Source: Siphonodentalium dalli
Lineage: Eukaryota; Mollusca; Scaphopoda; Gadilida; Siphonodentaliidae
NCBI GenBank assembly: GCA_032622095.1
Contig: CP136067.1
Span: 80,130,705-80,194,704, forward strand
Direction of reading: 5' to 3'
DNA length: 64,000 nucleotides
The position numbers and the translations under genes are program-made. Within the stretch, counting starts at the first letter, position 1. The number at the start of each line of letters is the position of its first letter. The notes under the pieces are model-generated. The model worked only from the letters and a program-made list of their open reading frames with translations. It was not told the origin of the DNA and did no database searches. This document shows, piece by piece, positions 1,076 to 63,851 of the stretch.

Positions 1076-1178
1076 GAATGAGTGATGTATCTGTTGCCAA
1101 ACGAATGGCCATGGCAAACTCTGTGAGGTATCTACAGGATGTCAGAATGAAAACACTAAACATGCTCAAGACTGACAG
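1076..1178 (+). CDS. SLC9C1: SLC9C1 exon a: linker after exchanger domain
   Basis: The acceptor is TATTTTAG before 1076 and the donor AG|GTTAGT follows 1178. Phase is 1 in, 2 out. It encodes a basic amphipathic helix containing AKRMAMANSVRYLQDVR and NMLKTD. This resembles the start of the conserved cytoplasmic segment that follows the last exchanger helix in sNHE proteins. The ATG-led ORF that covers it begins upstream in the intron and is not the true start. The previous exon, which must end with a G, lies outside the window. Confidence 0.85.
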
Positions 1179-1426
1179 GTTAGTTGCATTATATACCTTC
1201 CATGTTACACATCTTTCTTTCTTGTTTCAGCTTGCCTCATAGTGATGAGCGAGTAATAGCCTGTTACGTTTTGTGGGCTGTTAATTTTTTAGTAACTTTC
1301 TGTTAATGACATCTATCTCCTCCAAATTTCCATGGACTCTAATATTTGTGAAGTTTTCTGGCTATAATATACCTTTTATCATGATGGAACAGACTTGTTT
1401 TCTGCCTAATTCTCGTTGAGAAGGTA

Positions 1427-1612
1427 CAGTAATACCCTAAGTAATCGACTCTTTAACTACAGCAGAATTATGGGTAACTTTTCAGGATTTAGTTGGAAAT
1501 ATGGCTTGTTGCCATTTATCGGGGAGAGCTTACCGATGAATGGCAACAAGCCATATTTCCGACTAAATCCTGAAAAGTTACCCATAATTCTGCTGTACTT
1601 AGGGCATTACGG
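1427..1612. mobile_element. Fold-back MITE, family A copy 1 (TA target)
   Basis: Two inverted arms of about 80 bases share GTAACTTTTCAGGATTTAGT and TATGGCTTGTTGCCAT. The ends read CAGTAATACCC...GGGCATTACGG and are flanked by TA on both sides. The right arm lacks about 18 bases found in the other copies (25669-25842, 63396-63608). TA target duplication and CAG termini suggest a Tc1/mariner (pogo/Tigger-like) non-autonomous element. No coding capacity. Confidence 0.75.
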
Positions 1613-2188
1613 TATATTGCCACATCATGCTGTTGCCTATTTCTGAAAAGCCAATATTTCAAACAAAAAAACACACCTTTTCAGAGATGTGTGCCCATGT
1701 AGCTTTAGGCCCTGTGAAGATTCGAAGAGTTGCATGGTTTGGTGTCGAATCTCCAATTTGTAGATTTCTAAAATTGGGTTAATCTTGTTCATTTACAAGT
1801 CAAAGCTATATATCTAATTTATCCATGAGTGAAGATCAATGAATGGGGCAACTCCAACATTGTACAGAGAGGTCTCATGTCGATCGACACATATTTCACA
1901 AAAAATATCAGATATTGACACTAACTGATGACCTCAATATCCTCATATCTCTAATATTAGGTCACATTTAATTGAAACAGCCAAGATATAAAGTTACAGT
2001 GATTAACTGTTCTTTCAGTTTCATCATAAGTTTTCGTAACAGGTCTCTGGTTCTGTGCCAAATTCATGGAAACTTATTTAAAAGGTATCCAACGACTTTT
2101 TCATCCTGTGCTGGTCCGGATTCGATTTGGTTTCTGAATGGTGAATTCCCAATTTGTATGTCCCTAAAGTAGCCATTTATTATTTCAG

Positions 2189-2267
2189 GTTTTTAGCAGA
2201 TGCTGATTGGGAAAAAGTGGAAATTGCTTGTGAAATTGAGGATCCATACAAAACTCTGATAGGCGAG
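2189..2267 (+). CDS. SLC9C1: SLC9C1 exon b: linker (DADWEKVEIA...DPYK)
   Basis: The acceptor TATTTCAG precedes 2189 and the donor GAG|GTATAG follows 2267. Phase is 2 in, 0 out. Joined to exon a it completes an Arg codon and gives FLADADWEKVEIA followed by EIEDPYKTLIG, matching the conserved linker motif of SLC9C proteins. No ORF of 60 codons covers it because the exon is only 79 bases. Confidence 0.85.
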
Positions 2268-3245: not shown

Positions 3246-4245
3246 TAGGCTCCTGCGAATATTCGATATTCGATTCGAGATTCGATTCGAAAGTCAAATT
3301 CGATTCGAATTCGAGTCGAAATTGTCAACTCGAAATTTTGAATATACTTTGACGGAAAAGTAGGCTATTTAAGGACAAGTACACATGTCGATCTTAGCTG
3401 TTTGTGGCATTTAATTCCAGAAAATTATGTATATATGCACATTATAATTCTTATTGTACATAGCCAACAATTAGCCATGATAGGACTGACTAAATACGTC
3501 TGAATTATATAGCTTTAAAATGGTAGCAAAAGCTAGCAGATAGCCAATGGACCGACGACGCGGAAAATTATAATAGCTATGAGACTGGGCTACCGATAGC
3601 GTTATCCATCGTCTATTCGATTCCGCGTTATGTAATATGGGTGAGAATGTAAACAACACATGTTCCTGGTGTTGAAAAGTGCATTTTTGGCACTGTTCTC
3701 TTTTGAGGTTGACTTTCAGTTTCGGAGTTTTCTTTTACAATGGACAAAATGTCGTCCATCATTCATGTTTATTTTAAACATGATAAAGCTGCAGGCACGT
3801 GTGATGAATGCAACATGCATGGTGTATAAATCTCAAGCATCTGGGACAATGACCCATCTATGGAATCATCTGTTCAAGAAGCATCAACCAATACATGAAG
3901 AGGCTACACTGAGACTGTTGTTGCGTCTTCAAGTTTATAACAACGGGTGTTTCCGAATGCCGATTTGCAATTTTGCATGTACATGCAAACTGTAGAAATT
4001 TCGTGTGATTTTAGTTTGATAATCCGTTTAGTGGTAATATATTAATCGTTGTGATGGCCACATAAGTTCTGATGGAACTTCATGCATGTAGTTCATAGAA
4101 CGTTTCGCAAATAATCTAATCGTTGACAAAATATACCTAATTGAGAATGCAACACACAGATATGATTCAATTCGATATTCGATTCGATTTCGTGAATTCG
4201 ATTCGATATTCGATTCGATCAAAATATCCAATTCGCAGGACCCTA
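3246..4245 (+). mobile_element. hAT-like non-autonomous transposon with decayed BED-finger ORF
   Basis: The termini are inverted: TAGGCTCCTGCGAAT at 3246 and ATTCGCAGGACCCTA ending at 4245. Both are followed inwards by arrays of ATTCGATTCGA words. Between them, 3740-3905 encodes pieces of a BED-type zinc finger: a C-x2-C part with VYFKHDKAAGTCDEC in one frame, and the continuation with SGTMTHLWNHLFKKH in another, so at least one frameshift separates them. BED fingers are the usual N-terminus of hAT transposases. The catalytic DDE/hATC part is missing. I could not find a clean 8-bp target duplication. Confidence 0.6.
3740..3905 (+). pseudogene. Broken BED zinc-finger fragment of hAT transposase
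   Basis: The ATG at 3740 opens a short frame that carries the first Cys pair (TCDEC). The His pair (HLFKKH) is in a different frame of the same strand, with a frameshift near 3815. Ligand spacing and the aromatic VYF before the first Cys fit a BED finger. It lies inside the inverted-terminus element at 3246-4245 and cannot make a functional transposase. Confidence 0.5.
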
Positions 4246-6320: not shown

Positions 6321-6321
6321 C

Positions 6322-6443: not shown

Positions 6444-6451
6444 TTAATTAG

Positions 6452-7701: not shown

Positions 7702-7783
7702 TATTAACTTGCGGTAGCTGGAGATGTCAAGATAAATTTCATTGTTATTGACACATTTGTTTTACAAAGATTTCTCATTTCAG

Positions 7784-7930
7784 GATGAATCTGATGAGGT
7801 GACGGATGTTGATATAAAGGTTTGTACAGTTTGTCCAGAGTGTGATACAGCATTGCCTCCACAATACACGAAGAAAGAGATGAACGAGATGACAAACGCA
7901 GCTGTGCTCAGAATGCTCAAAGCTGAGAAG
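7784..7930 (+). CDS. SLC9C1: SLC9C1 exon c: linker with CxxC motif
   Basis: The acceptor TTTCTCATTTCAG precedes 7784 and the donor AAG|GTGAAG follows 7930. Phase is 0 in, 0 out, 49 codons. It starts with an acidic stretch (DESDEVTDVD), then CTVCPECD, then a charged helix ending RMLKAEK. It continues the cytoplasmic linker between the exchanger and the voltage sensor. The C-x2-C-x2-C arrangement is visible, but I cannot say whether it binds metal. Confidence 0.85.
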
Positions 7931-8469: not shown

Positions 8470-8567
8470 ATGAGTTATTGGCGACAATTTGAGCAGGGTA
8501 TGCTGTCCCGGGAAGCTGTCAGAAGGTTACAGGAATACACAGAAATAGCAGCTGACACCAGAGGAAA
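8470..8567 (+). CDS. SLC9C1: SLC9C1 exon d: linker helix (SYWRQFEQGMLS)
   Basis: The acceptor TTTGTCTGCAG precedes 8470 and the donor GGAAA|GTATGT follows 8567. Phase is 0 in, 2 out. It encodes SYWRQFEQGMLSREAVR and LQEYTEIAADTRG, matching the family pattern in which a W-x2-x-E-x-G helix is followed by an ADTKG-type turn before the voltage sensor. The open frame runs on past the donor for about 80 codons, but the consensus donor and the phase of exon e place the end here. Confidence 0.88.
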
Positions 8568-9730
8568 GTATGTGCAGTTGATTAGTGCAACTACAAATAT
8601 GGGATGGGGACGTTATATGCATATTCTTAAATATATTGAATTTGAATGCCTCTTCCAAATATATAAAAGATGCAGTTACAACCTGCAGTATTGCTTTTCG
8701 CAATTTACAAACAGAACAGCCATTCTAATGATGACAAGAACTCTTCAGCCTCAACTCATGACGGCTTCAAACAAGTTTGCTTTTATTATTTCATTCTTCA
8801 ACATTTGTATATACTAGTAATACTGAAAATAACTCTAGTGCATGTAACAATCACGTTTTTGACTAATTCAGTTAGGCAATTGAGGTATTGAAGCACATGT
8901 AAATCTACGAATAGCCAGGATGTTCACAATTGGGAGGTGTCGACTGGTATTGAAATTCAATAGGATCTTTGATAGATACGGTACCATACCATACAATTTC
9001 ATAGACCCGTATACCGGGACTGTACAATGATGTCGCCGACCAGGACACTTACCTTGATAACTATTCCATTGGCATTTCAGTCTATTAATCCAACATATGT
9101 GGTGAAGAGTTACTTAAACATTGTCGCTCTAAAGCCAGAAAACCACCCTCAAAATGGTAGCAATCGATACATTAACATAATATGAAGTCGCTCAAGAGGG
9201 CTGACAGCCAAGTAACGTAATTTGCCAGGGGCTCGGCATTGAATTAACATTTTTCTTGTGAACACATATTTTGTTAATACATGTAGCTGGAAACCTAGTA
9301 TTATAGTTAAGATGCATTGATTCATGTTATACTATCTCCCTATAAAGGGAACATTGGGAAATACATTCTGGTCTCTTTTCTTGGCCACTGCTTTGGTGAT
9401 TTATTCAATGGATAACTGTACACGTCAATGTTTTGTTTTACTAACTGTAGTTACCTATGTATTTATTTCATAAAAAGAATTATTACATGCTTGTTCCCAG
9501 AAGTACAGTGTTTATTGCTCTTCCATATTCACAAATACGTATGGAGCGTACGTTCCATACGCATCTTATTGACGTAAAATGACATACATGACGTTCGCCT
9601 CAACCATTAAACCGGAACTATAAAATAAAAGCATCATCACACATGACAAAATACGCCCTCTATGTGCCTAAATAAACCTTCTAAGTCTGTATTTTTAATG
9701 CAGGGATTATAGGACGCGAAGCGTGTAATA

Positions 9731-9886
9731 AACACAGAACGACGTGATGTGTAAATGGGTTTGTCGATACTCGTGCTGTCGCGGAAGGATAGAACTCGAG
9801 GTGCAAGTGTCTCTCGTTCTATCCTTCCGCGACAGCACTTGTGCCGTATCGACAAACCCATTTACACATCTTGTCGTTCTGTGTAT
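9731..9886. repeat. Long imperfect inverted repeat (hairpin/MITE) next to exon e
   Basis: The left arm (9731-9795) contains GTGTAAATGGGTTTGTCGAT and GCTGTCGCGGAAGGATAGAA. The right arm (about 9815-9886) contains the complements. The loop is about 20 bases, and a few mismatches and a short insertion interrupt the stem. It ends 22 bases before the acceptor-to-exon junction of exon e, so it could affect splicing. The superfamily is not identifiable. Confidence 0.7.
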
Positions 9887-9908
9887 ATATGGCATCAATA
9901 TTTTTCAG

Positions 9909-9969
9909 AACCGTCCACATTGAAGAAATCATGGTTGACTGGCGTGTCCCATCATTTTATATCAAAGTG
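9909..9969 (+). CDS. SLC9C1: SLC9C1 exon e: 61-base micro-exon
   Basis: The acceptor ATATTTTTCAG precedes 9909 and the donor GTG|GTAAGT follows 9969. Phase is 2 in, 0 out. It resolves an otherwise impossible junction: exon d ends in phase 2 and exon f begins in phase 0, and a direct join hits a stop. The encoded HIEEIMVDW and RVPSFYIKV fit the family segment just before the voltage sensor, where a DDLxxYWxVxxxY-type motif is expected. It is too short for ORF scanning and its frame differs from the longer ORF overlapping it. Confidence 0.85.
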
Positions 9970-10222
9970 GTAAGTGAGATTAAACATTAACTTGTCTTAC
10001 TCGACTCAACTACACAAACTTTATGTTCACATCTTCCCTGTACTGGTAATAAGATTATTCAAATTGCTGATATTTATGGAAACTGTTTACAGCTGACCTA
10101 ATTACATAGTTTCGTATTGTGCACATGCTATGTGATGTCATGCGATGTGTTAATTCTTTGTTAAAAATAATTTAGCAACATAAACAAAATTTGAGTAAGC
10201 AGATCTAAAAGATTGCAAGTTG

Positions 10223-10437
10223 TTAACCCTTTCAGTGCCAAGTCCGATTTTTGTATCAACCCATATTTCCTTGATCATTTTTCAAATTTATTGATTATAA
10301 TAATGTGATACATTGATGGAAAGAGCTCTAAGAGCTCTTTCCATCAATGTATCACATTATTATAATCAATAAATTTGAAAAATGATCAAGGAAATATGGG
10401 TTGATACAAAAATCGGACTTGGCACTGAAAGGGTTAA
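10223..10437. mobile_element. Perfect 215-bp palindrome, piggyBac-like fold-back MITE
   Basis: Two 107-base arms are exact reverse complements around a single central base (10330). The outermost four bases are TTAA on each side, followed inwards by CCCTTTCAGTGCC and GGCACTGAAAGGG. TTAA targets and CCCTTT termini are hallmarks of piggyBac-superfamily elements, so this is best read as a fold-back piggyBac-like MITE. By eye I found no mismatch between the arms. An inverted-duplication artefact of assembly is possible but less likely given the TTAA edges. Confidence 0.8.
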
Positions 10438-10864
10438 AACTAAATATAGACATGACCAATGGGTGGAATCCCGAGACAAAAATTAACAGCATTGATTATA
10501 CATCAATCTGAATTTAAGTTAATAATCATCATCAATCTGTAATCTTCATAACTTACCATTAAGTAGCCAATCAAAACTCGAAGAATTCATTTATACCGCA
10601 CGCATGTGCTTCACAAACAGAATAGTAGCCAAACCATGTCGGCAACCATGATCTCTTTGAGACAATTATCAAATGCAGCGCACAGTTATCGCCAATTGAA
10701 ACAGTTTCATGACTGCATATATATATCTTTTTTCAGTGATGTATTTTTCTGTGAATGTGTACCAAAACACTATTGTTATATGGAGTCTAGTGATCGTATG
10801 GCTTACCTCCAACAAATCTATTCATCAGAATTGGACATCAGACGAATGTGCCTCCAGATACATC

Positions 10865-11414
10865 AGGGGGGGGGGGTCGGAAACAAATTTCAGGCACGTA
10901 TGGCATTTTTTCCCTTTCGATCATTTTTTGTACGTACCCACCCACCCCCACCGCCAAATTTTTTTCCGTTTTCGGCAGTTTTTTCCGACCATTTTTTGAC
11001 ACCCACCCCCCTTTTAACACTAAAACAGAGATTTGCGGGGGGAAATTCACTGTAAACAGCTGTATATGAATTTCTGTGCATACTATTTATCATGGATGTT
11101 AACATGGACATGTAAATAGGAATGAGTCATTTTGAGGTCATTCGGCCAAAAAAAAGATGGCTGCCAGCGGCCATCTTGGATTTCAATATTTGCAACAAAA
11201 TACAACACGATAACTGCCTGCAGTCAGTTTACCAGTTAGAATTACATTATTTCTCTCATTCAAACTGGTTTTGAAGCCCAACTCATTGCCAAAACACTAA
11301 AAAACAAGCAGGAATATTTTTTTTTAGTTGCGGAAAAAATTGCTTGTTGGTGGTTTTGACCACCCACCCACCGCGGCATATGTGCCGGAATTTTTTTTTT
11401 CACCCCCCCCCCTG
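10865..11414. mobile_element. hAT-like MITE with 8-bp target duplication GATACATC
   Basis: The ends are AGGGGGGGGGGTCGG at the left and the inverted CCCCCCCCCCTG at the right. Matching subterminal sequence (TTTCAGGCACGTATGGC against its diverged complement near 11370-11400) supports the pairing. GATACATC occurs immediately outside both ends (10857-10864 and 11415-11422). An 8-bp duplication plus CAGGG-type ends indicates hAT. Internally it overlaps the family of the 4750-5612 repeat (CATGTAAATAGGAATGAGTC), and a related copy lies at 40630-41090. No transposase. Confidence 0.75.
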
Positions 11415-11592
11415 GATACATCGGAAATTTGATTAGAGGCTTTTTCCTATCACTAATTCATTTGAACGATGATTTAATGACCAGCCTAGGCTTAGTGTTT
11501 TAATATTTCTCAGGCTGTCATCTGTTTACAGTATTTTGAACATCTCTACAGATGACGATTGAGCCATTCCCATGTATACTTTCAGAACTTAA

Positions 11593-11828
11593 CCCTTTCA
11601 TGACAGGAGCTGCGCTGATGCACCATTTAAGATCCTGTGTCAGTGCATTCTCTTATATATGGAAGTTTCCCACAGGGAGCCTTGCATATATAAGAAACTC
11701 CACTGGCTTACAAGGTCAGGGTAAATATTGTTCGCCAATGATTTTTTTCTTATATAGAGACTCGCATATATAAGAGAACGCATTGGCACAGGGTTTTCGC
11801 AAAATTTCAGGAAGCTCTAGTCATGGGT
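11593..11828. mobile_element. Family B MITE copy (TTAA-flanked)
   Basis: It starts after TTAA (11589-11592) with CCCTTTCATGACAGGAGCTG and ends near AGCTCTAGTCATGGG, the diverged inverted counterpart. It contains several CTTATATATG / CATATATAAG words in both orientations. It ends only about 60 bases before exon f. TTAA plus CCCTTT suggests a piggyBac-like origin. Confidence 0.65.
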
Positions 11829-11890
11829 GAGACAAGCCATGTGGTAATCAAATGGATAAATGATTGATTTGACATTATTTAATTTTGCAG

Positions 11891-12151
11891 AAACAAGCTC
11901 TTAGAATTCTGATCAACTCGACTGTGCTGCCAGACCTACCCTCACAGAAGCACCATCTACAGCTCATTCGAACCTTGCTGTCTGGAAGTTGCTTCCCTGC
12001 ATTTCTATACTGTATGGTTGGCATGGATATTATCAACATAACCGTCACTTCCGTCGCGTTGTATCAGCCGGAGATGATGTTCCTGAACATCATGTTTCAG
12101 CTAGTCAACCTAAGCTTTGTGTTATTTTATGCAATTGAACTGTTTCTTAAG
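11891..12151 (+). CDS. SLC9C1: SLC9C1 exon f: voltage sensor S1-S2
   Basis: The acceptor TAATTTTGCAG precedes 11891 and the donor CTTAAG|GTCAGT follows 12151. Phase is 0 in, 0 out, 87 codons. It begins with KQALRILINS, then two hydrophobic helices: S1 around FPAFLYCMVGMDIINITVT and S2 around MFQLVNLSFVLFYAIELFLK. The Glu in AIELFLK sits where voltage-sensor S2 helices carry their conserved acidic counter-charge. This is the start of the voltage-sensing domain that distinguishes SLC9C from other exchangers. Confidence 0.92.
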
Positions 12152-12862: not shown

Positions 12863-12982
12863 CAGTAATGCTCCCTGAGAGCTTTCCGATGAATGGCAAC
12901 AAGCCATATTTCCGACTAAATCCTGAAAAGTTACCCATAATTCTGCTGTGGTTTAAGAAGTCGATTACTTAGAGCATTACTG
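12863..12982. mobile_element. Fold-back MITE, family A copy 2 (one arm mostly deleted)
   Basis: The ends are TA|CAGTAATGCTCCC and GAGCATTACTG|TA. The right arm is complete (CCGACTAAATCCTGAAAAGT, then GTCGATTACTTAGAGC), but most of the left arm is missing, leaving about 120 bases. It belongs to the same family as 1427-1612. Confidence 0.7.
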
Positions 12983-13184
12983 TAGTCTGGAGGATAATCT
13001 TAGTCTTTTTTAAATGATTATTTGGATAATGTGATGTATATTAGCCTCACTGATTGTTCATTATCCATTCTGCTGCACTTGGTGGCAGGTCCTCTGTTTG
13101 GAAGGCTAACTATAGTTTTTCTATTTTGTATTTCATATTTGAATCAATCAGCACACCCTGAAGCCGACATATATTGATGAAATG

Positions 13185-13741: not shown

Positions 13742-13936
13742 TATTTGTTGCTGAGAAATCGTCTCCTGAAATGCTACCTTCACCTTTATTGCCTGATTGT
13801 TTTGGTTATTGGTATGGCCGACAGCATTACTACCATCACCCTAGTGACCCTGACAGAGGACACTCCTGAGAAATATCGAAGTGTCGTAATGTTCTTCACC
13901 CTAACCAGAGCTATCCGTGTACTCAGACTAATCCAG
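13742..13936 (+). CDS. SLC9C1: SLC9C1 exon g: voltage sensor S3-S4
   Basis: The acceptor GTTATGTTACAG precedes 13742 and the donor ATCCAG|GTGGGT follows 13936. Phase is 0 in, 0 out, 65 codons. S3 is CYLHLYCLIVLVIGMADSI, with an acidic Asp where S3 helices carry one. After a short loop (TLTEDTPEKYRS), S4 reads FFTLTRAIRVLRLIQ, with Arg at every third position (R-AI-R-VL-R). That spacing is the signature of a voltage-sensing S4 and is the feature expected to drive hyperpolarisation-gated exchange in sNHE. Confidence 0.93.
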
Positions 13937-23217: not shown

Positions 23218-23419
23218 CCAGCATTGCCATACCTGTTTGACCTGGTAAAGAGGCTGATCAGTAAGAAGTTGAGTCTTGGGTATGATATCGGACGAGGATT
23301 TGTGGCTGGAGAGGAAGAGGTTAAAAAGCTCATAGATCATATGGTTGATAATAAAGACATCAGTGAAGGATTGAAGGAAACTAGTGATGCTGCCAGATTA
23401 GAAGTCATAAAGGGCCTTG
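23218..23419 (+). CDS. SLC9C1: SLC9C1 exon h: helix after S4
   Basis: The acceptor TCTATTTATAAAG precedes 23218 (a weak pyrimidine tract) and the donor CCTTG|GTATGT follows 23419. Phase is 0 in, 1 out. It joins exon g as ...RLIQ|PALPYLFDLVKRLIS, extending the S4 helix into the cytoplasmic coupling helix. It then encodes LSLGYDIGRGFVAGEEEV and DAARLEVIKGLG. The GYDIGRGFVAGEEEV segment strongly resembles the conserved sNHE motif after the voltage sensor. Confidence 0.92.
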
Positions 23420-25668: not shown

Positions 25669-25842
25669 CAGTAATGCCCTAAGTAATCGACTCCTTAGAC
25701 ACAGCAGAATTATGGGTAACTTTTCAGGATTTAGTCTGAGAGCTTTCCAATGAATGGCAACAAGCCATATTTCCGACTAAATCCTGAAAAGTTACCCATA
25801 ATTCTGCTGTGTTTAAGGAGTCGATTACTTAGGGCATTACTG
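25669..25842. mobile_element. Fold-back MITE, family A copy 3 (well preserved)
   Basis: The ends are TA|CAGTAATGCCCTAAGTAATC and the exact inverted counterpart ending GGGCATTACTG|TA. The two arms meet near 25740 and match well across about 70 bases, apart from a deletion of the middle part of the left arm. With 63396-63608 this is the best copy for defining the family. Confidence 0.8.
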
Positions 25843-27600: not shown

Positions 27601-27749
27601 GTTTGCTACAAAAGGAGAATCCAGATATCGCCTTATCAGTGAAAACACGACAAGCCGTCAGAAGCGTGCTGAACAACCTTCGAGACGGAGTTAATGAACT
27701 TCTCACAGATGGCATTCTCGAAGAGATTGAGTCCAGGAAGCTTGAAGAG
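27601..27749 (+). CDS. SLC9C1: SLC9C1 exon i: coupling helices before CNBD
   Basis: The acceptor CATTGTCTTTAG precedes 27601 and the donor GAAGAG|GTTTTT follows 27749. Phase is 1 in, 0 out. It encodes LLQKENPDIALSVKTRQAVR and NLRDGVNELLTDGILEEIE, a helix-rich segment like the C-linker that joins the voltage sensor to the cyclic-nucleotide-binding domain. The ATG-led frames here start inside the intron and are not real starts. The donor is weak (GTTTTT) although the following intron is 12.6 kb. Confidence 0.88.
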
Positions 27750-38334: not shown

Positions 38335-38364
38335 TTTGGTCCCTCAAACCGGATCCAATTCAAC

Positions 38365-39519: not shown

Positions 39520-39710
39520 ATAACAGACAATGCCTGTGATAACGCACGCGCTATTGTATGCTCGTGAGTGAACTTTGAATGTGACTATGTGCGCTTGTGA
39601 CATTGGTGTCAGATTGTGATTATGTAGTTCAGAGTAAAGGTGTGTTATATGCTGTACTTCGCTTGTCCGACTTCTTCGATCTTCCAGATATTTATTCGTA
39701 CTTCCCGACA
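39452..39710 (+). repeat. 3' LTR
   Basis: 259 bases beginning TGTCGGGGATTAG and ending TTCCCGACA, followed by the target duplicate ACTAA. The ORF of the internal region ends 68 bases inside it. Confidence 0.88.
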
Positions 39711-40312: not shown

Positions 40313-40438
40313 ATGGTAGAAGGTAAGATGAAGCAGCTTCTGAATACTCCATACAGCATACCGATACCACCTCCAGATAAGATGCTCAATAACGTACCAT
40401 GGCTCAGAAATAGTCCACGATTGATTGCTTATGTCAAG
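40313..40438 (+). CDS. SLC9C1: SLC9C1 exon j: segment entering the CNBD
   Basis: The acceptor AATTTTTTTTGCAG precedes 40313 and the donor GTCAAG|GTAACA follows 40438. Phase is 0 in, 0 out, 42 codons. It encodes MVEGKMKQLLNTPYSIPIPP, then DKMLNNVPWLRNSPRLIAYV. The VPWL motif followed by a short helix is typical of sNHE just before the cyclic-nucleotide-binding domain. The leading ATG is an internal Met, not a start. Confidence 0.88.
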
Positions 40439-47000: not shown

Positions 47001-47680
47001 TAATGATAAAGTACCATCATGTCATGATAAAGTATCATCATGTCATGATAAAGTACCATCATATAATGATAAAGTACCATCATGTCATGATAAAGTATCA
47101 TCATATAATGATAAAGTACCATCATGTCATGATAAAGTACCATCATGTCATGATAAAGTATCATCATATAATGATAAAGTACCATCATGTCATGATAAAG
47201 TACCATCATGTCATGATAAAGTATCATCATATAATGATAAAGTACCATCATGTCATGATAAAGTACCATCATGTCATAATAAAGTACCATCATGTCATGA
47301 TAAAGTACCATCATGTCATGATAAAGTACCATCATGTAATGCTAAAGTACCATCATGTAATGCTAAAGTACCATCATGTCATGATAAAGTACCATCATGT
47401 CATGATAAAGTATCATCATGTCATGATAAAGTACCATCATGTAATGATAAAGTATCATCATGTCATGATAAAGTACCATCATGTAATGATAAAGTACCAT
47501 CATGTCATGATAAAGTATCATCATGTCATGATAAAGTACCATCATATAATGATAAAGTACCATCATGTCATGATAAAGTATCATCATATAATGATAAAGT
47601 ACCATCATGTCATGATAAAGTACCATCATGTCATGATAAAGTATCATCATATAATGATAAAGTACCATCACATCATGATT
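44050..47680 (+). repeat. 21-bp satellite array (3.6 kb, about 170 units)
   Basis: The consensus unit is ATGATAAAGTACCATCATGTC (given here with one base over the usual quoting length as the unit itself). Variants alter mainly TCATGATAAAG / TAATGCTAAAG / TCATAATAAAG and ACC/ATC. Higher-order periods of 16 units (336 bp; 44683 against 45019) and 23 units (483 bp; 46850 against 47333) are visible. Small deletions near 46410-46455 shift the frame of the array. Two plus-strand frames and one minus-strand frame lack stops, so ORFs of 612, 1220 and 429 codons appear; none is likely a gene. Confidence 0.95.
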
Positions 47681-47759: not shown

Positions 47760-47858
47760 GAAAAAGCAAAGCTTCTGACCTATGACTACAAGGATGTGAT
47801 AATAGAAGAGGATGCTCCCCCTGGTGGTGTTTACATCATTGTCTCCGGAATGGTGAGG
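47760..47858 (+). CDS. SLC9C1: SLC9C1 exon k: CNBD N-terminal beta strands
   Basis: The acceptor TTTTTATTTAG precedes 47760 and the donor GTGAGG|GTATGT follows 47858. Phase is 0 in, 0 out, 33 codons. It encodes KLLTYDYKDVIIEEDAPPGG, then VYIIVSGMVR. The pattern 'E-x2-P-x-G-V-Y-I-I-V-S-G-x-V' is the first half of the cyclic-nucleotide-binding fold, as in HCN channels and PKA regulatory subunits. It starts only 80 bases after the end of the 21-bp satellite. Confidence 0.92.
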
Positions 47859-48244: not shown

Positions 48245-48421
48245 TTGGAAAGTACAAAAAGAATGATGATTGGACGGGTTCCAAACCCGATAGAGAGAAC
48301 GAGTCACCATCGGCCACCTACTATTATAGACTTCCTCACTGCTGGCCAGCTTATAGGTGAGATGGGATTGTTGACAAGGAAGCCGCGTAGTGCCACAGTG
48401 ACATGTGAGACGGCTGTCCAG
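48245..48421 (+). CDS. SLC9C1: SLC9C1 exon l: CNBD phosphate-binding cassette
   Basis: The acceptor ACATTTTTTCCAG precedes 48245 and the donor GTCCAG|GTAGGT follows 48421. Phase is 0 in, 0 out, 59 codons. A basic loop (TKRMMIGRVPNPIERTSHH) leads into TIIDFLTAGQLIGEMGLLTR and then KPRSATVTCE. The Glu of GEM and the Arg of PRSATV are the residues that grip the ribose and cyclic phosphate in this fold, and both are present. The Ser next to the Arg is permissive for either cAMP or cGMP. Sea urchin sNHE is known to bind cyclic nucleotides here; ligand choice cannot be read from sequence. Confidence 0.93.
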
Positions 48422-49505: not shown

Positions 49506-49509
49506 TTAA

Positions 49510-51863: not shown

Positions 51864-52004
51864 CTATTGTTTATCAGTCTTGACGACATGATAAAGGCTA
51901 TGATTGAGTTTGACGATGCTGATCCTCCATTGGAGGAAAGATTATGGCATGTGTGTGCAAACAGAATCGCACTGACAATTCTCATGCAAGAACTAGCATT
52001 CCAG
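51864..52004 (+). CDS. SLC9C1: SLC9C1 exon m: CNBD C-terminal helices
   Basis: The acceptor GTCATTTTTAG precedes 51864 and the donor TTCCAG|GTAAAA follows 52004. Phase is 0 in, 0 out, 47 codons. It encodes LLFISLDDMIKAMIEF (the 'V-x-x-I-S-x-D/E-x-x-x-x-A' entry to the lid helix), then PPLEERLWHVCANRIALTIL. This completes the cyclic-nucleotide-binding domain and starts the downstream helices. Confidence 0.92.
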
Positions 52005-54635: not shown

Positions 54636-55341
54636 TGTCTCCGCGTGCCAAGCAAAATACATTGTCATTGAAGTCGAAAAAGTTAATAGGCCTACGGACA
54701 AAATGCATATTAAATAATGTGAACAAAGCTGTGCCTTTGATTCCAAAATAACTTTGTTAGAAATTCCACCAATTCTGTAGGGTATTCTTATTTCATTTTG
54801 TTGTTCAATATAGTTAAAGTTCACCTTCCCTTGATTTCTTCTGGCTATCTGAGTAACTTAATGTTTGACACAATTATCAACAGCAACTTACAGATTACAC
54901 CCTCAATGTGACATTTTGTTTAATATTTAATATGCAGACTATATACACTCAGTATTGGTATTCACAGGGAGTAAGTATCTCTGAATCTGAATTAATTTTG
55001 ATATATTAAATCCGCTTGTATAATATTCACCAATAGGATACACTCAAATTCAGCCACAGAAGTTTGGGGAAATAATGAATATCAGGTTTCGTGTTATTGT
55101 TTACATTTTATGAGAAGTTAATAAATGATATCTAAATGAATTAATGATGTTTAGTTCACCAGTGATCATGCGGGGGAAAGTCGTCGAATAATATGCCCAA
55201 GATATTTTTTTATTTTTTTTTTTAACCCTCCTCCATCTAGGGAATTTTCCACTCATGTTCGTAAACCAAGTCATTAAATTGTGGTGGCCTAATAGGCAAA
55301 CAACCACAATTTGTTTTTGTGTCTGTTTAGAAAATTTAACT

Positions 55342-55551
55342 TGCGCCAGTGGGTTGTATCTAGTCAAGACTGTGTTTGGTTGTATTGTGTGTGACCGTCC
55401 AATTGCGGTCTCTATTATAACAAACCAGGTTTTCTCTCTCTTGGTTTGAGTCGGAAATCTTGACCGCGTGTATTATTGTCTCATTCTAATAAATACTCAT
55501 TTGATTCATCTGTGTTGGTTACCCGACTATGTAACTACCAAAGTAATGGCG
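55342..55551 (+). repeat. 5' LTR of decayed element
   Basis: It matches 57827-58051 closely from CGCCAGTGGG to AATGGCG. The outermost bases differ (the 3' copy starts TGTGGTTACGCC, this one TTGCGCC), so the 5' edge may be eroded. Confidence 0.7.
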
Positions 55552-55760
55552 TGGTGGCAGCGTTGATATAAAACCTTCGTCTCCATTACATTGAACAAGG
55601 AAGTGACAGTCCACAAGTCGGAGTTGGGTGAACTACATTGCATATTTTCGACGCAGCAGCTGACCGACAGGGAAATTCCGCTGATAAGTATTCTTTCATT
55701 TGGGTGTTTCATTTTGGAACTAACACGTGGTCCGACTTTCGCGACGTACCAGTATAGAGC

Positions 55761-56537
55761 ATGGCATCTACACCCATTATAACACCGTGGTGTTTGACAA
55801 AGACAGAGACGGTAGCTTCAGTTAGAGAGTGGCGAAGTACCATCGTACGATCACTGTCAATGGACGACAATTTTGAACCATTCTTAGTTGAAGGTACTAC
55901 ATGGTTGATGAAAACAAAGGCCAATCCACTCAGAGGCTTTATCAGTGATGACGACAACATGCAAATAGACAGCCGCAGAAGTGCGAGTCAGAAAGTTGCT
56001 CTCTTAGAGGTAATGCTAGGACATATCGCAAGATATTGTCCAATAATTGCACGTTATTCTATCCTCAAAAGGTCGACCTCCATGAAAAGTATTTGGAGAA
56101 TGATTCGAGTACACTTTGGATTCTATTCGGTTGAGGAAACTTGTTATGCAGAGCCAGCAGAAGAGAAATTGGTAGTGCAACATAAAGAAATACATGTAAA
56201 TGTGTCCTGCTCGGATATTTTACCAGATAATATCGCTTCGTACCCACTTATCGAACAACATCAGAGGGTATGTGTTTGTACAACTGATCCATCAGGTCCA
56301 TCGTATGTGTATGGGCAGATTGGAAAGGAAGAAACAGGCGATTCCACATACTTGAGCCAGATCTCACGAGAAAAAGTGTCCATATACACTGGAATGACTG
56401 ATCTTAACGAACCCAACAGCGGTGACTTGTTGTTTGTCGAAGACGATCATTTGACTGCGAGATGTGACTACGTCAACTCACCAAGAATTGACTTATATTA
56501 TAACAACAAAATCGTGTGTGTGAGTCTTAAGACTTAA
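55761..56537 (+). pseudogene. Gag-like ORF (258 aa), truncated
   Basis: The ATG at 55761 opens MASTPIITPWCLTKTETVAS. The following part (VREWRSTIVRSLSMDDNFEP, WLMKTKANPLRGF, QKVALLEVMLGHIARYCPII, SIWRMIRVHFGF) resembles the conserved helical Gag region of a Ty3/gypsy-like group common in marine invertebrates (W..TI...L..D..F..FL..G..W and LMLGQIA.YCPVI). The usual long C-terminal part with a CCHC knuckle is missing. The frame ends in TAA just before a protease-like sequence in another frame. Confidence 0.5.
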
Positions 56538-57501
56538 GTCAGGTCAGGACATTAACTTGATTGATCGCTCGCTTGCTGAGGACCTCGGTATATGTATCAC
56601 TGAAGCAGACCACATTACTATCCCGATATATGATGGATTGCTGGTATCAGTTGTTGGTCATGCAAGTCTAACACTATCGCGTGGTGGATCCCTATTCTAC
56701 TTGGATGCGGTAGTCGCGGAAAATCTGAACATCGACATACTGGCAGGAGATTCATTCATGAACATCAATGAATTGACGATTAAACCAGAGAAGTCCATTG
56801 TTCTTGTTGACAATCATGTGTTTTATTCTTATGGCCATCACAACAGCAAGGAGATTCCACATGCATGTGAGTCTCTCGCAAAGATAAATGTTCGAACCCC
56901 AGCAAGCACAGCATTGGACATAAATGTATATTCCCTATACCCAAACGATCAATGTATGAAAGTGGAAGAAGATGGGTACTCTGAGGACTTGGATGATCGA
57001 TGCGTGAATGTTACATCCGACATGTCACATGGATATGGATTAATACAGCCAATAAATGCAATATCGACATACCCGATCGTAGTTGTTCCATCCATGAAAT
57101 ATACCAGCAAACACAGCTCGCACACATGGGATGAACTGAATATGGAGGCAAACGGATCCTTTGAGAGTGGCCAGTCTGTCGTGTCACACGGAGATAGCCC
57201 GAAACAGATACTTGTTACAAAACCTCAAGTGACGGAGAGCGGGAAGGAAGTTGTCAGTATTGGAATATCATGCAGGGTGTTTGTCAACTTTGTTGGTTCC
57301 CGAGTGAGCGATGACTGTATGAGTACACACCTGCGGGGGAAACATCTACACACAAACGTGATTACCGATACTAATGCATGTGCCAATCAGTCATTTAATG
57401 TCGATGATAACTCCAAAGTTAAACCATGGGACAGATATACATGTAATGCAGATTTGATCATAGGCAGGCATGTCAGTCGGTATAAAATGAGGAATCTATA
57501 A
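56524..57501 (+). pseudogene. Protease-like ORF with damaged active site
   Basis: The frame opens after a stop at 56521-56523. Its first residues (LKSGQDINLID) align by eye with the retropepsin pattern of Asp-Ser-Gly-Ala followed by hydrophobic residues, but the catalytic Asp position is Lys and the Ala is replaced. SLAEDLGI and DILAGDSFMNIN then fit a retropepsin fold, while the remaining two thirds are unrecognised. Substitution of the catalytic residue and the frame break from the upstream ORF show it is inactive. The ORF is open to TAA at 57501. Confidence 0.45.
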
Positions 57502-57826
57502 TCGGTTGCCTGTAGTGTTACGCACAACACAGTGTTACCATTGAAGCATGTAGTTTTCTTATGCACAAATTACCAACATTTTGTGCATGACGGATTGTAA
57601 TAGGAACAACTGGAATTTCAGACTGTAAGGATGTTCTTTAATTGTCGCAAGTCGGTCATGACTGATTCAAATTAGCTGGTGATATCAATCACGTGCTGAT
57701 CTATGTTTTACTTTGTCGATGTGTTTGTGTTCTTTTCTTCGTGTATAGCCAGTGTGACTAGCACGTCTATTATTTTTATTGACATTATATGATTCGATAA
57801 ACAAGGAGAGGAGAGGAGAGAAAGAA

Positions 57827-58051
57827 TGTGGTTACGCCAGTGGGTTGTATCTAGTCGAGACTGTGTTTGGTTGTATTGTGTGTGACCATCCAATTGCGGT
57901 CTCTATTATAACAAACCAGGTTTTCTCTCTCTTGGTTTGAGTCGGAAATCTTGACCGCGTGTATTATTGTCTCATTCTAATAAATACTCATTTGATCGAA
58001 TATTGTCATCAGTGTTGGTTACCCGACTATGTAACTACCAAAGTAATGGCG
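57827..58051 (+). repeat. 3' LTR of decayed element
   Basis: It begins TGTGGTTACGCC directly after a purine-rich tract (57801-57826) and ends around AATGGCG. It carries about ten extra bases (CGAATATTGT region) relative to the 5' copy. Confidence 0.7.
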
Positions 58052-58341
58052 TTGTGGATGCAAATATGAACATGGTAGCTGGAGACAATATGAAGAACCA
58101 GTGATTACCATTTTGTTTTGTGTTGTTTTTGTTTACCTTCTCCCAATAATTGCATTCTCATCATCTCATTCATTGTTACTCAGGGTTGGCCAACTTGTAC
58201 AATTGTGAATTGATCATGGTATGCCCAATTGATTGGGTTGGGAGGGACAAAGCCATAATCAATTGACAAATTATCCCCCTCAATAAACAACTCATAATTT
58301 ATCTTACTACTTTATTTATCTGAAGTATAATGATAAATATA

Positions 58342-58473
58342 CAGTAATGCCTTAAATAATCGAGAGAGCTTTCCGATGAATGGCAACAAGCCATATTTCC
58401 GACTAAATCCTGAAAAACTACCCATAAATATATTCTGCATTGGTTAAGGAGTCAATTATTTAGGGCATTACTA
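58342..58473. mobile_element. Fold-back MITE, family A copy 4 (shortened)
   Basis: The ends are TA|CAGTAATGCCTTAAATAATC and GGGCATTACTA|TA. The right arm is complete and the left arm is reduced, as in copy 2. It lies about 265 bases before exon n. Confidence 0.7.
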
Positions 58474-58737
58474 TAGGAATGCCCCTACGAGATTGGTCAA
58501 CTAGCACAAAGCACACCACCTAGGGTGATATTTAGCTCCCGCTGAATTTTCAAAAAGCCAAGCCTGACTTTTTCTGTTAAAGATAACATCGTCGTCATGA
58601 TCTTTGTCACATAATTGTTCAGTATTGAACATATTGAAACCTTCCCTGTTTTGATGTATTTCACTGTGTTTTCATTATGTCTTTACAACAGAATATGCTA
58701 CTAATCTTGTTAATCTGGTATATTTTGCTTTATACAG

Positions 58738-58849
58738 AGCTTGACGAAGGAGAAGATTAAACTGATGTTAGAATCTTCTTATCTGGCGGAAATTGAAGAT
58801 GATGCGTTCACAATAACTTCATCGATGTCCGACGTTGTCCTCGTTCATG
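58738..58849 (+). CDS. SLC9C1: SLC9C1 exon n: C-terminal domain, first part
   Basis: The acceptor TGCTTTATACAG precedes 58738 and the donor CATG|GTTTGT follows 58849. Phase is 0 in, 1 out. It encodes LTKEKIKLMLESSYLAEIED, then FTITSSMSDVVLVH. A helix followed by short strands fits the small beta-rich C-terminal domain of SLC9C1. The tandem AG (CAGAG) could allow acceptor slippage, but the other choice breaks the frame. Confidence 0.85.
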
Positions 58850-59329: not shown

Positions 59330-60625
59330 CAGATTTCAAAAATCAATATCTAATAACGCTGATCTTTGATGGGTGGGTTCCTTGACTCAAATCAAATATT
59401 TGTTACCCCCGAACCCAAAGAAATAGTAATTTAGGGTCATTTAATCAGATTATGCATCTTTAAACGGACATGGGTCATTCGAGCCCTAAAATTTATGTGT
59501 ACGTAATTCGAGAAAAGGGGTCTCAAAACATCCATATGTAAACTATTTCAGAGCTAATTCGTCGATATAGCGCTAAAAAACGTGATTTGTTAGTTATATT
59601 TTTGCGTAATTTGATATCGTTTCGCTGTTCCGGTGTAACACGATATCTCCCCCCCCTGGGTATCTTCCCCCGCACCGGTTAAATTTTTCTAATCTGCCGA
59701 TCTTCCGAGTGATGCCGGCAGCGCTCGTGTGTTTTCGGAAATGAGTGCATTCTCGATACCATCATGTTTGTGACGTAATATTTTCCAAGTTTCCCCAGCG
59801 TCTCTATCATTTTCGGTATGCGATAATATGTTTCTGTTGGATCCTATTTGTCCATGCGAGAATAATACCTCTGTTGACAAGGATGTGACGATATAACGGT
59901 TTTCCAGTTTGTTACACAATGTCAACATGAATTTTAGTCATTTACATTGATCCTTGGAACACATTGATTTTTCTCAAATATACTCGCAATTTTGTAGGCA
60001 ATAATTTTCAGTTGAGTGTGTCGATGAACTGCAGTTAGTTCAATTCTGTAGTTCTTTTTAAAGGTACTCAATCCGATCAGGCGGTCCCCACACCATCAAG
60101 ATACAACAGCAACAACGTTTCTTCAAAATACGCTTTAGTTATCAGAATCGAAATATTGCAACAATATTATGCTAATCACTGTCAACTATGGTATCAAATT
60201 TCGCAAAACTTGTTGTTTATCAACATTTTGTTCAACAAAATATGGCCGTATTATCACTAAAGTATCACAAAATTTGACCGTATTACCACTTGACTTTAGA
60301 GTTATCCATCTTCATCCGCAATTTTGTCCGAGACCCTCCGTTTGACCACGTGTTTCTGGGCCACATATTATTACACATCTTGAGAAATAATAAACTTCAA
60401 CAATCGATATCTGATCACTCTGAGCTCGAGTCAAATATTTTTTACCCCAGGAACCAAAGAAATAGTAATTTAGGAGAGTCTGATTGGATTGAGTACCTAC
60501 CCAGGTGGTGAAAAATAAAAGATATCAAAAATCGATATCTGATAACTCTGAGCTTTGATGGGTCCTCGACTCAAGTCTAATATTTTGTTAACCCCCGAAG
60601 CCAGAGAAACACTAATTTAGGAATA
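59330..60625. repeat. Three diverged copies of a roughly 100-base motif
   Basis: ATCAATATCTAATAACGCTG at 59340, ATCGATATCTGATCACTCTG at 60404 and ATCGATATCTGATAACTCTG at 60530 are each followed by a phrase ending in AAAGAAATAGTAATTTAGG or a close variant. They lie in the intron between exons n and o and are not coding. Confidence 0.6.
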
Positions 60626-63395
60626 TAGGTTGCTTGTAGCACTTAAAATTTGTTTATTTTTTTCACCATCAGTTTAATTAAAACCACCTGCCTCTGAGTC
60701 ACAAGTCGAAATGTGGGAAAAGGGCAAACATGTAAGACCTCCATGTCATGGGTAAATGCTGAAAAGACAAAATATTCTTGTCGATAAAAGTTTTGACCTA
60801 GAAAATATTTGGACTAAGTTGGTTTTTATTCCATTTTGAAGAGGAATAATAATCATATTCTCTACCGGTACAACATATTCAAAATCCGATAAATACGCTT
60901 AGAGCATAATGTTCTATTCAAAATGGCATCCATGATGACAATTGGTAATGAAAAATGCTGATTTTCTGTGATACGTGGCTTTAGGTGCACCAACTATCGC
61001 CAAGTTAGCAATAAAATAAAATATACACAAACAATGCTTTGTCGTAAACCATATAATTACGAGAATGTCTGTCCCAACATGGCCATATCACACCTGTTAC
61101 CCCATTTGATCTTGGAATAGTTAGAAAATCGACATGAAAAATAACGCCAAAAAATATGCGTCTTCACCATCGGTTTCAGTAGTAGAATAGAATTAAATTT
61201 ATTTTAATTTATTTTTCCTCAAAATGTGTCTACATTGTTTACACGCCGTTCCCACGACACAACTTTCAAATTATATACAGCAGTGCGGAACACAAGGCTC
61301 ACATCTACTACTTTCATATGATATCTATTTTTCCGTGTGTTTAAAAAAATATATTCAAAACAGTTAATCCAAGTAGATAATTAACACAGTTCCAATGCAT
61401 AAGTGCGTGTGTACACACTCTCCCCGCCTGTCTATCTTGTTTACAGTTGATTTCAACATATAAACATGCAATGGACGATCAATCTACTTAAATTGTGAAA
61501 AACTATATGCATTCATACTTAGCTAGATCATATCATGAACCTCTACACTGGCTATACGCCCGTAGAGATAATTCTACACCAGTTCAAGTAATGTGAAATG
61601 TTTCATATTCAGATATATAGGGAAGTTTATAAACATTTAAAAAAAACTGTGCATGCAGCTAATATATTCTTAGTTAATATCATTCCTCAGTAAATAGTGT
61701 ATTCCACTGTGTACGTAGTTCACGAAGATCCCAGCTCGATGTTGCATGAAATATGTCACTTTGTTGAGTCGAGTTTGATTAGCATCCTTTACAATCATTA
61801 AATTTCTCACAGGTAATCAATTTCAATGTTTATTTCGATGTCGACTCCCAAAAGTCACAGACAAATCACGCAATCTGGAGTGTCACACCCCATATTGTGA
61901 AATATATTATTAAGGAACATGTAATAAATAAATATATATAGTCACTGAGTTGTTTTTTTCAATGCTATAAAGTTCTCCGTCAGAACATTAAAACGTTCCC
62001 ATATTTTTAACTGGTTGAATATGACCTCTACGGTAGCCAGAGTATAAATTCATGACATGATCTAATACTTGGCGACCCATTCCTATATTCTGTAAGAAAG
62101 ATATTCAGCATATACTGCAAATCATGCAATTTACTACGATAATGATGTTGGATTGAAATTTAAATACAAATGCATCTCAACATAATTACTTATTATACAT
62201 GTATAAGTAATATTATGTTCCTTTCTGAACCCCATCCCCCAATCGCACCATCGCCATGTCTCGGATAAATTCAGGCTGACCGTCCTATCATTAAATTCTT
62301 GTCAACACAGACCATTTTTCTCACAGGGACACATACGATCAAATTGAAACCCCTTTATCGCGTACCGTAAATTATAAGACGCTGGGGAAGTTTATTTACG
62401 ATTACACCCGGAAATCCTCGGCTCTTGTCGGTGATTGCATCATCCAAAAATGGCAGCTATGTTGGAAAAAATGTTCGGGACCCGAACATTGCTATTTTAT
62501 TGTAATTTTCATGACTTGAATGCGTCATATATGGGAAATATATTTGTCGTAGAAAGGTAGTTTGGGTATTTATCTACCTATTTTGATACCGGGAAAATTT
62601 CAAAAGCGAATATTATTTTGTGTATTTTGGAGCGCAAACCGCCATGTGGCTTTAACTCTTTCAGTAACTCCCTTAACCTTACACTGCTAAAGGGCCAGGG
62701 CTATATCGGCCCTAATATTGGCCAGGTTTTAAGACTGTTTATTTTGGTAATAATTGCATGACAAAACATGCAATTATATTATGCAAACTTAATAGCTAGA
62801 ATTATGTATTATTTTATTTTCAGCGACTTATATTATTTATTTGGTGTTTATTTGAAAATCACATGAGAATAGAAAATGAATGTTATCAAGAACTTTCATG
62901 TCAGTCATTTTGGTTGACCACATCATTACGACAATTGGCATAGTAACAGTCTTTGTATTAATAAAAATTGTTTCCTATTATTCAAAGATATATAGGCATA
63001 ATTTAATAATTAGTATTTATTAGTAATTTCCTTTTTTTTAAATTGATAAATTGGCCAACTAATACCTACAGACATGTAGCAGTTTTTGTATATGGACATT
63101 TGCTCGAATTATTGCCATTGTTGGCACTATATTCCAACTTAGCAAACATTTAGCATTATAACTTCAATACCAGGGGAGTGATACTAACATATAACAGAGT
63201 TTAAGCAGATTCTTATCACAAACCTTATGGGACTTCTTTGTTGTGCACCCTCTTGTTGATTTTGTCACTTATGTGATTGATCATCGACTAAATTAGGGTC
63301 TCTCACAATGGCAGGTACACAAGCAGTTCAGCCTGTCATATTAAAATGTTTGGTAACTTTCAACCTGTCAAAGACATGCCAGTTTTTCAATGCTA
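60626..63395. other. Intron, no gene seen
   Basis: AT-rich DNA without a supported ORF, RNA gene or complete mobile element. TATA-type microsatellite patches occur (for example near 61930). Confidence 0.6.
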
Positions 63396-63608
63396 TAGTA
63401 ATGCCCTAAATAATCGACTCCTTAACCACAGCAGAATTATGGGTAACTTTTCAGGATTTAGTTGGAAATATGGCTTGTTGCCATTCATCGGAAAGCTCTC
63501 AGTGAGAGCTTTCCGATGAATGGCAACAAGCAATATTTCCAACTAAATCCTAAAAAGTTACCCATAATTCTGATGTGGTTAAGGAGTCGATTATGTAGGG
63601 CTTTGCTG
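63396..63608. mobile_element. Fold-back MITE, family A copy 5 (both arms complete)
   Basis: TA|TAGTAATGCCCTAAATAATC at the left and GGGCTTTGCTG|TA at the right enclose two arms of about 100 bases. They meet at GAAAGCTCTCAGTGAGAGCTTTC. The central hairpin and both arms are intact, making this the fullest copy in the window. It ends 160 bases before exon o. Confidence 0.8.
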
Positions 63609-63768
63609 TATGTGATGATAATGGGAAAGTTTCAAATGTAAACTCCTTGCTTCTCTATGATTTATAAACGAGGTAATCCTTTTGGCAAATTCTTGCTAAT
63701 TGACAGGACTGATGGTGACATTCTACTAACAACCCTTCTACGAGTAACTTTGTCATTATCTTTTGCAG

Positions 63769-63851
63769 GATATGCTGAGGACTTTGTCTCCAGAGAGCAG
63801 TTTATGGGTCCATGTTACATTCCTTGGACTGTTCTGAAGCTCAAAATTGAG
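63769..63851 (+). CDS. SLC9C1: SLC9C1 exon o: C-terminal domain, continued
   Basis: The acceptor ATTATCTTTTGCAG precedes 63769 and the donor ATTGAG|GTATGC follows 63851. Phase is 1 in, 0 out. Joined to exon n it completes a Gly codon and reads GYAEDFVSREQFMGPCYIPW, then TVLKLKIE. The frame is open at the donor, so the gene continues past the window. Confidence 0.88.

What the first reader, a model, noticed from the sequence alone, without database searches (positions are those of the whole stretch)
1076..63851. Internal half of a sperm Na+/H+ exchanger gene (SLC9C1) stretched over more than 62 kb
Fifteen in-phase exons rebuild the linker, voltage sensor, cyclic-nucleotide-binding domain and part of the C-terminal domain of sNHE. 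The architecture (exchanger plus channel-type voltage sensor plus CNBD) is unique to SLC9C. It makes this the only clear host gene in the window, and the plus-strand exons would be missed by ORF finding alone.
Basis: partly seen in the sequence, partly recalled or inferred. Interest (0 to 1): 0.75.

Follow-up and report, generated by a model that had tools for sequence, protein, structure and literature searches.

The report
Middle half of sperm proton-exchanger gene
This stretch holds the middle half of an animal gene for a sperm sodium/proton exchanger, cut into fifteen small pieces over some 63,000 bases; the kind of gene is known, but its built-in voltage sensor lacks several of the charges found in the well-studied sea urchin version.

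Summary
Confirmed. Fifteen plus-strand exons (1076-63851), all AG/GT-bordered, join in frame into 677 stop-free codons (2,033 of 62,776 bp). The product aligns to sea urchin SLC9C1 residues 483-1175 (best E 3.8e-148); no HCN or CNG chain is among the 13 distinct chains at E<=0.001. SLC9C1 versus SLC9C2 is undecided, the exchanger domain lies outside the window, and there is no transcript evidence.

The notable point is uneven conservation. Linker, S4 extension with ICH5-7, and CNBD are 45-55% identical to urchin; exons 5-7 (S1 linker and VSD) are 37/158, the other twelve exons 242/497. Four of seven S4 basic positions are neutral (797 S, 800 M, 803 T, 815 Q) and charge-transfer Asp767 is Cys; R806, R809, R812, Y743 and E746 remain. 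Pfam Ion_trans gives 15 bits versus 53 for the matching urchin stretch. Seven of eight named cNMP-contact residues are kept.

Best reading: a cAMP-binding SLC9C exchanger with a weakened or retuned voltage sensor; whether it still senses voltage cannot be told from sequence. Species unknown.

The parts
1076..1178 (+). exon 1; urchin residues ~483-515, linker after the exchanger domain
   Evidence: AG/GT, frame; alignment
2189..2267 (+). exon 2; ~516-542, linker
7784..7930 (+). exon 3; ~543-591, linker
8470..8567 (+). exon 4; ~592-623, linker (ICH region)
   Evidence: donor AA|GTATGT
9909..9969 (+). exon 5; ~624-644, linker before S1 (short, 2/21 identical)
   Evidence: only by frame and joined alignment
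11891..12151 (+). exon 6; ~645-750, S1 and S2 of the VSD; Y743 and E746 kept
13742..13936 (+). exon 7; 751-815, S3 and S4; D767 is Cys, S4 keeps R806, R809, R812 and lacks charge at 797, 800, 803, 815
23218..23419 (+). exon 8; 816-882, cytosolic S4 extension and ICH helices, K880 kept
27601..27749 (+). exon 9; 883-932, ICH helices
40313..40438 (+). exon 10; 933-974, ICH7 (K939 kept) and proline-rich link to CNBD
47760..47858 (+). exon 11; 975-1007, start of CNBD
48245..48421 (+). exon 12; 1008-1064, CNBD phosphate-binding cassette, E1044 and R1053 kept
51864..52004 (+). exon 13; 1065-1110, CNBD C-terminal helices, W1091 and R1097 kept
58738..58849 (+). exon 14; ~1111-1149, second beta-roll domain
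63769..63851 (+). exon 15; ~1150-1175, second beta-roll domain (continues outside the window)
   Evidence: frame and joined alignment

Best explanation
An intact-looking internal half of an SLC9C (SLC9C1/sNHE-type) Na+/H+ exchanger gene of an unidentified animal. In sea urchin SLC9C1 the long S4 and intracellular helices hold the exchanger inactive, hyperpolarization moves S4 down and frees it, and cAMP bound to the CNBD makes that easier. Shown here: exon structure, family, domain order, conserved coupling helices, mostly conserved cNMP-contact residues, and a VSD lacking the urchin charges at 797, 800, 803, 815 and 767. Inferred: fewer charges cross the field (perhaps R806 and R809 only, about 2 elementary charges, against 3.1 in urchin wild type and 2.0 in urchin R803Q), so the sensor responds more weakly or at other voltages and cAMP weighs relatively more. 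The confidence given is for identity and architecture; I put about 0.5 on 'weaker or shifted but still voltage-responsive' and about 0.3 on 'essentially voltage-independent'.
For: phmmer 498.1 bits, E 3.8e-148 to SLC9C1 (8xq8); SLC9C1 CNBD chain 9ydf 2.8e-21; four SOS1/'Sodium/hydrogen exchanger 7' chains 2.9e-9 to 4e-9; nothing else at E<=0.001. 677 open codons, 15/15 AG-GT. Pfam cNMP_binding 55.1 bits, cut-off 27.5. Identity to urchin: ICH1-4 linker 72/141, S4 extension + ICH5-7 70/127, CNBD 75/165, but S1 part 3/21, S3 6/27, membrane S4 9/22; exons 5-7 37/158 vs the rest 242/497, Fisher p 1.3e-8. Ion_trans 15.0 bits (17.1 with S1) vs 53.4 for the urchin stretch, cut-off 25. PDB search with the 96-aa VSD stretch: urchin 80 distinct sequences at E<=10, of the 60 shown 8 SLC9C1 and 52 channel or channel-chimera; window 10, being 8 SLC9C1 at E 0.02 and 2 unrelated. 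Kept: K880, K939, L1008, L1036, I1042, E1044, M1045, R1053, W1091, R1097. Function of these residues: PMC6052114, PMC10620092, PMC10602139, PMC10620091 (passages).
Against: No RNA; no exchanger domain, 5' or 3' end in the window. Only one species could be aligned over the VSD, so 'lost' is relative to sea urchin; K800, R803 and R806 are said to be less conserved across orthologues (PMC10602139, passages). The S1 alignment is weak (3/21). F1032 (cNMP contact) is Ile and Y1035 (CNBD interface) is Phe here. Exons 5, 6, 7 and 15 are not significant alone. Faster VSD divergence may be general in the family; no control for that was available.
Confidence: 0.93

Rival explanations
1. The VSD is an ordinary, fully working voltage sensor: three S4 arginines with Y743 and E746 are enough, and the differences from sea urchin are neutral variation typical of the source phylum.
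For: Hv1 has three S4 basic residues and all contribute to gating charge (PMC13095418, passages). R806, R809, R812, N736, Y743, E746 and D777 are kept. K800, R803 and R806 vary among orthologues (PMC10602139). Almost all sNHEs analysed by Romero and Nishigaki conserve key VSD residues (PMC6660944, section 15), so a working VSD is the family default.
Against: R803, whose change to Gln costs about one gating charge in urchin, and D767 of the charge-transfer centre are both replaced; K815, called highly conserved, is Gln; Ion_trans falls below cut-off.
Confidence: 0.2
2. The gene is an SLC9C2 (NHE11)-type paralogue rather than SLC9C1.
For: Mammalian NHE11 keeps three of seven S4 positive charges and lacks the R803 equivalent (PMC10049371, passages), as here.
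Against: The same paper suggests the duplication occurred during mammalian evolution and that sea urchin has one SLC9C gene; the animal here is unknown. No SLC9C2 sequence was available to compare.
Confidence: 0.12
3. A decaying pseudogene, with the VSD ahead in decay.
For: Low identity in exons 5-7.
Against: 677 codons without a stop, frame kept through 14 junctions, all splice borders canonical, and about half identity outside the VSD.
Confidence: 0.03
4. Exon 7 is a minor or alternative exon, and another S3-S4 exon with the full charge set is used.
For: Intron 7 is 9.3 kb, room for another exon.
Against: tblastn of the urchin S3-S4 stretch over the whole window finds nothing below E 0.4 except exon 7 itself.
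Confidence: 0.04

Closest known systems
Sea urchin SLC9C1 (PDB sequences 8xq8, 8otq, 8pcz, 8u6z and others; listed as 'Sperm-specific sodium proton exchanger', species from the papers and recall)
   Same: Same domain order, collinear alignment from 483 to 1175 with short gaps; linker, S4 extension, K939, R1053, W1091, R1097 kept
   Different: VSD exons about a quarter identical; residues 763, 764, 767, 797, 800, 803, 815 replaced
SLC9C1 CNBD, PDB 9ydf ('Solute carrier family 9 member C1'; species not shown in the listing)
   Same: CNBD homologous, E 2.8e-21
   Different: Only this domain could be compared
Mammalian SLC9C2 / NHE11
   Same: Reported to keep three of seven S4 charges and to lack the R803 equivalent (PMC10049371, passages)
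   Different: Reported to keep three of four S1-S3 acids; here E746 and D777 are kept, D767 is Cys, and the S1 acid cannot be placed safely (my extension without a gap puts Thr opposite E698; S1 alignment weak)
Ctenophore (sea walnut) sNHE
   Same: A published degraded VSD in this family (PMC6660944, section 15)
   Different: There only S1 is said to be conserved; here S2 and the inner part of S4 are the better kept parts
SOS1 / 'Sodium/hydrogen exchanger 7' chains (7y3e, 8jd9, 8j2m, 8iwo)
   Same: Match the region from S4 extension to CNBD, E about 3e-9
   Different: Much weaker; plant SOS1 is described as CNBD-bearing without VSD in non-metazoans (PMC6660944, section 15)

Membership tests
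SLC9C (sNHE) | N-terminal Na+/H+ exchanger domain | not testable with these tools
   Would lie upstream of the window; search of the window's own genome did not complete
SLC9C (sNHE) | Linker / ICH1-4 between exchanger and VSD | tested here: met
   72/141 identical to sea urchin
SLC9C (sNHE) | Voltage-sensing domain S1-S4 with spaced S4 charges and charge-transfer centre Y743/E746/D767 | tested here: inconclusive
   Region present in order, gapless from S2 to S4 extension; Y743, E746 kept, D767 not; 3 of 7 S4 basic positions kept; Ion_trans 15-17 bits, below cut-off 25
SLC9C (sNHE) | Long S4 extension and ICH5-7 with basic residue at 939 | tested here: met
   70/127 identical; K939 and K880 kept
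SLC9C (sNHE) | CNBD with cNMP-binding residues | tested here: met
   Pfam cNMP_binding 55.1 bits; L1008, L1036, I1042, E1044, M1045, R1053, R1097 kept, F1032 replaced
SLC9C (sNHE) | Second C-terminal beta-roll domain | tested here: met
   25/63 identical up to 1175; its end lies outside the window
SLC9C (sNHE) | Testis/sperm-restricted expression | not testable with these tools
   No RNA data
SLC9C1 as against SLC9C2 | Place in a tree with both paralogues | not testable with these tools
   No SLC9C2-named chain among the hits; no animal genome collection on hand
HCN/CNG channel | Pore domain between S4 and CNBD; best hits to channels | tested here: not met
   S4 runs on into the SLC9C1-type helix region; no channel among 13 hits at E<=0.001

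The most novel reading that the evidence does not exclude
In this animal lineage a member of the only known voltage-gated transporter family has largely given up voltage sensing: S4 has lost its outer charges and the S3 partner aspartate, while the S4-helix lock and the cAMP site are kept, turning a voltage-gated, cAMP-tuned exchanger into one gated mainly by cAMP.
Probability: 0.27. Interest if true: 0.55.

Novelty: new member of a known kind. Interest (0 to 1): 0.33.

Why it matters
SLC9C1 is described as the only known transporter regulated by voltage-sensing domains (PMC10620092, abstract start in the listing). A natural family member that keeps the lock and the cAMP site but lacks R803 and D767 would be a ready-made test of which parts voltage gating needs and which cAMP gating needs, and of whether hyperpolarization is the general trigger of sperm alkalinization in animals. 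For annotation: fifteen small exons make up 3% of 63 kb, beside intronic satellites that are open for over a thousand codons.

Tried and rejected
An exon at 59693-59770 was my guess for a piece between 58.7 and 63.8 kb; rejected because exons 14 and 15 join directly in frame and align contiguously.

Exon 4 was first given a later donor (8611); it was replaced by 8567 (AA|GTATGT), which leaves two bases over and calls for one more exon. One search listed 16 candidates (8600-11880, AG..GT, containing W, length 1 mod 3, 40 to about 130 nt, no stop); of the two rows with start 9909 the one ending at 9969 was chosen by eye and then aligned by HMMER. Searches use other exon labels (their E5 to E13 are exons 6 to 14 here).

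A second, better S3-S4 exon was sought by tblastn over the whole window; only 13799-13930 matched below E 0.4. A strongly diverged one would be missed.

One viral-contig scan with a stretch of exons 8-10 found no relative (40 pattern matches, none confirmed). Paper searches on SLC9C in molluscs, ctenophores and lophotrochozoans listed no title about a degraded VSD in a bilaterian SLC9C; one search was too broad to tell, only listings were seen for most papers, and supplements could not be read, so this is no proof that none is in print.

AlphaFold was not run: the spliced product is not a letter-for-letter translation of the window.
Full report
Observation. The window is 28-40% GC per 4 kb, with no tRNA by ARAGORN and no Rfam match at gathering score. 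Plus-strand open stretches and their AG/GT sites gave candidate exons, fixed by frame and joined: 1076-1178, 2189-2267, 7784-7930, 8470-8567, 9909-9969, 11891-12151, 13742-13936, 23218-23419, 27601-27749, 40313-40438, 47760-47858, 48245-48421, 51864-52004, 58738-58849, 63769-63851. All 15 have AG/GT borders; the join is 2,033 bp, 677 codons and no stop; the fourteen introns sum to 60,743 bp. Candidates were picked by eye and by alignment, so the frame agreement is partly a result of selection; the alignment is the independent evidence.

Identity. A query of pieces of four exons already gave SLC9C1. The joined product without exon 5 (656 aa) gave E 3.8e-148. The 13 distinct PDB sequences at E<=0.001 are eight named 'Sperm-specific sodium proton exchanger', one SLC9C1 CNBD (9ydf, 2.8e-21) and four SOS1/'Sodium/hydrogen exchanger 7' or Na+/H+ antiporter chains (2.9e-9 to 4e-9). 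A query from the end of exon 3 to part of exon 8, with exon 5, aligned through both exon 5 joins without a gap. In tblastn on the raw window 11 of 15 exons are significant alone (E<=0.001); exons 5, 6, 7 and 15 are not. The PDB was my only source of animal relatives.

Numbering. 8xq8 numbering plus 27 equals that of 8u6z and 8otq, and the letters then agree with residues named in PMC10620092 (passages): Y743, E746, D767, K800, R803, R806, R809, R812, K815. PMC6052114 counts seven S4 charges and PMC10620092 six from K800 on; that the seventh is K797 is my inference from the sequence.

Region by region. Identity to sea urchin: ICH1-4 linker 72/141; S1 linker 10/49; S1 part 3/21; S2 8/23; S3 6/27; membrane S4 9/22; S4 extension with ICH5-7 70/127; CNBD 75/165; beta C-terminal domain 25/63. 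Region borders are my own choice. Exons 5-7 together 37/158 aligned residues, the other twelve 242/497 (Fisher p 1.3e-8; exon 7 alone 17/65, p 5.5e-4). 22 of 677 residues are unaligned, 15 of them in exon 6, partly because the urchin S1-S2 loop was not in the printouts. The p values treat residues as independent and are descriptive only; no second species was on hand to show what is usual for this VSD.

Voltage sensor. Kept: N736, Y743, E746, D777, R806, R809, R812. Changed: W763 to L, N764 to H, D767 to C, K797 to S, K800 to M, R803 to T, K815 to Q; N691 lies opposite Asp in the weakly aligned S1. From S2 to the S4 extension the alignment has no gap, so the S4 register is fixed on both sides, given the exon 7/8 join; no other in-phase acceptor precedes exon 8 in its open stretch, though its acceptor (AAG) is the least typical. 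Control: the 114-residue urchin stretch scores 53.4 bits against Pfam Ion_trans, the window's 15.0 (17.1 in a 180-residue stretch with S1), cut-off 25. The 96-residue urchin stretch matches 80 distinct PDB sequences at E<=10; of the 60 shown 8 are SLC9C1 and 52 channels or channel chimeras. The window's stretch matches 10: 8 SLC9C1 at E 0.020-0.024 and two unrelated proteins. Part of the contrast is that the urchin query finds itself in the library; the channel hits are the fair comparison.

What it should do. In sea urchin the wild type moves 3.1 charges and R803Q 2.0 with V1/2 shifted by -24 mV; R1053Q abolishes the cAMP shift (PMC6052114, passages). PMC10620092 assigns the charge to R803, R806 and R809 and describes E746 and D767 pairing with R812 (passages). 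With R803 and D767 replaced I infer a weaker or shifted sensor. Of eight cNMP-contact residues named in the passages of PMC10620091 and PMC6052114 (L1008, F1032, L1036, I1042, E1044, M1045, R1053, R1097) seven are kept and F1032 is Ile; of the CNBD interface residues K880 and W1091 are kept and Y1035 is Phe, R1185 is outside. So cAMP binding is likely. Against a dead sensor: all three S4 basic residues of Hv1 contribute to its gating charge (PMC13095418, passages).

Compared with what is known. Romero and Nishigaki report that almost all sNHEs they analysed conserve S1-S4 and key residues, with a markedly degraded VSD in a ctenophore, and that Mollusca and some arthropods have sNHE and sAC without CatSper (PMC6660944, section 15 and passages). 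Mammalian NHE11 keeps three of seven S4 charges, lacks the R803 equivalent and keeps three of four S1-S3 acids (PMC10049371, passages). A preprint calls R809, R812 and K815 highly conserved and K800, R803, R806 less so, particularly in mammals (PMC10602139, passages). Loss of R803 and K800 thus has precedents; loss of K815 and D767 I did not see described, but I read passages only and no alignments or supplements. I file the gene as a new member of a known kind, with its VSD as the one notable feature.

Other content. ORF lists are dominated by two minisatellites in introns 9 and 10. Two LTR-like repeat pairs lie in introns 9 and 13. Of 18 other ORFs scanned none passes a Pfam cut-off. Species, exchanger domain and expression remain unknown.

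Noticed in passing
window 29855-37496: 57-bp minisatellite, 131.6 copies, in intron 9, with strong strand asymmetry (GC skew 0.52 at 32-36 kb); long open frames on both strands follow from a period divisible by three.
   Followed up: partly
window 44079-47679: 21-bp minisatellite, 171.9 copies, in intron 10, ending 80 bp before exon 11; gives a 1,239-codon open frame that looks spurious.
   Followed up: partly
window 38075-39710: 260-bp direct repeats (95%) at the ends of a stretch holding a 438-codon ORF without a Pfam match: short LTR-like element in intron 9.
   Followed up: partly
window 55341-58057: Direct repeats (165 nt at 98%; about 220 nt at 94%) around ORFs 55758-56537 and 56524-57501 without a Pfam match; the second resembles an aspartic protease by eye (recalled). 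LTR-like element in intron 13.
   Followed up: partly
window 1425-1604, 12871-12985, 25667-25844, 58364-58482, 63394-63610: Related repeats at five places, at least three of them self-complementary (MITE-like hairpins); a separate 225-nt near-perfect palindrome at 10218-10441.
   Followed up: no
window 3645-3992 and 19347-19580: Short open stretches that look by eye like transposon zinc-finger fragments (recalled); no Pfam match above cut-off.
   Followed up: no
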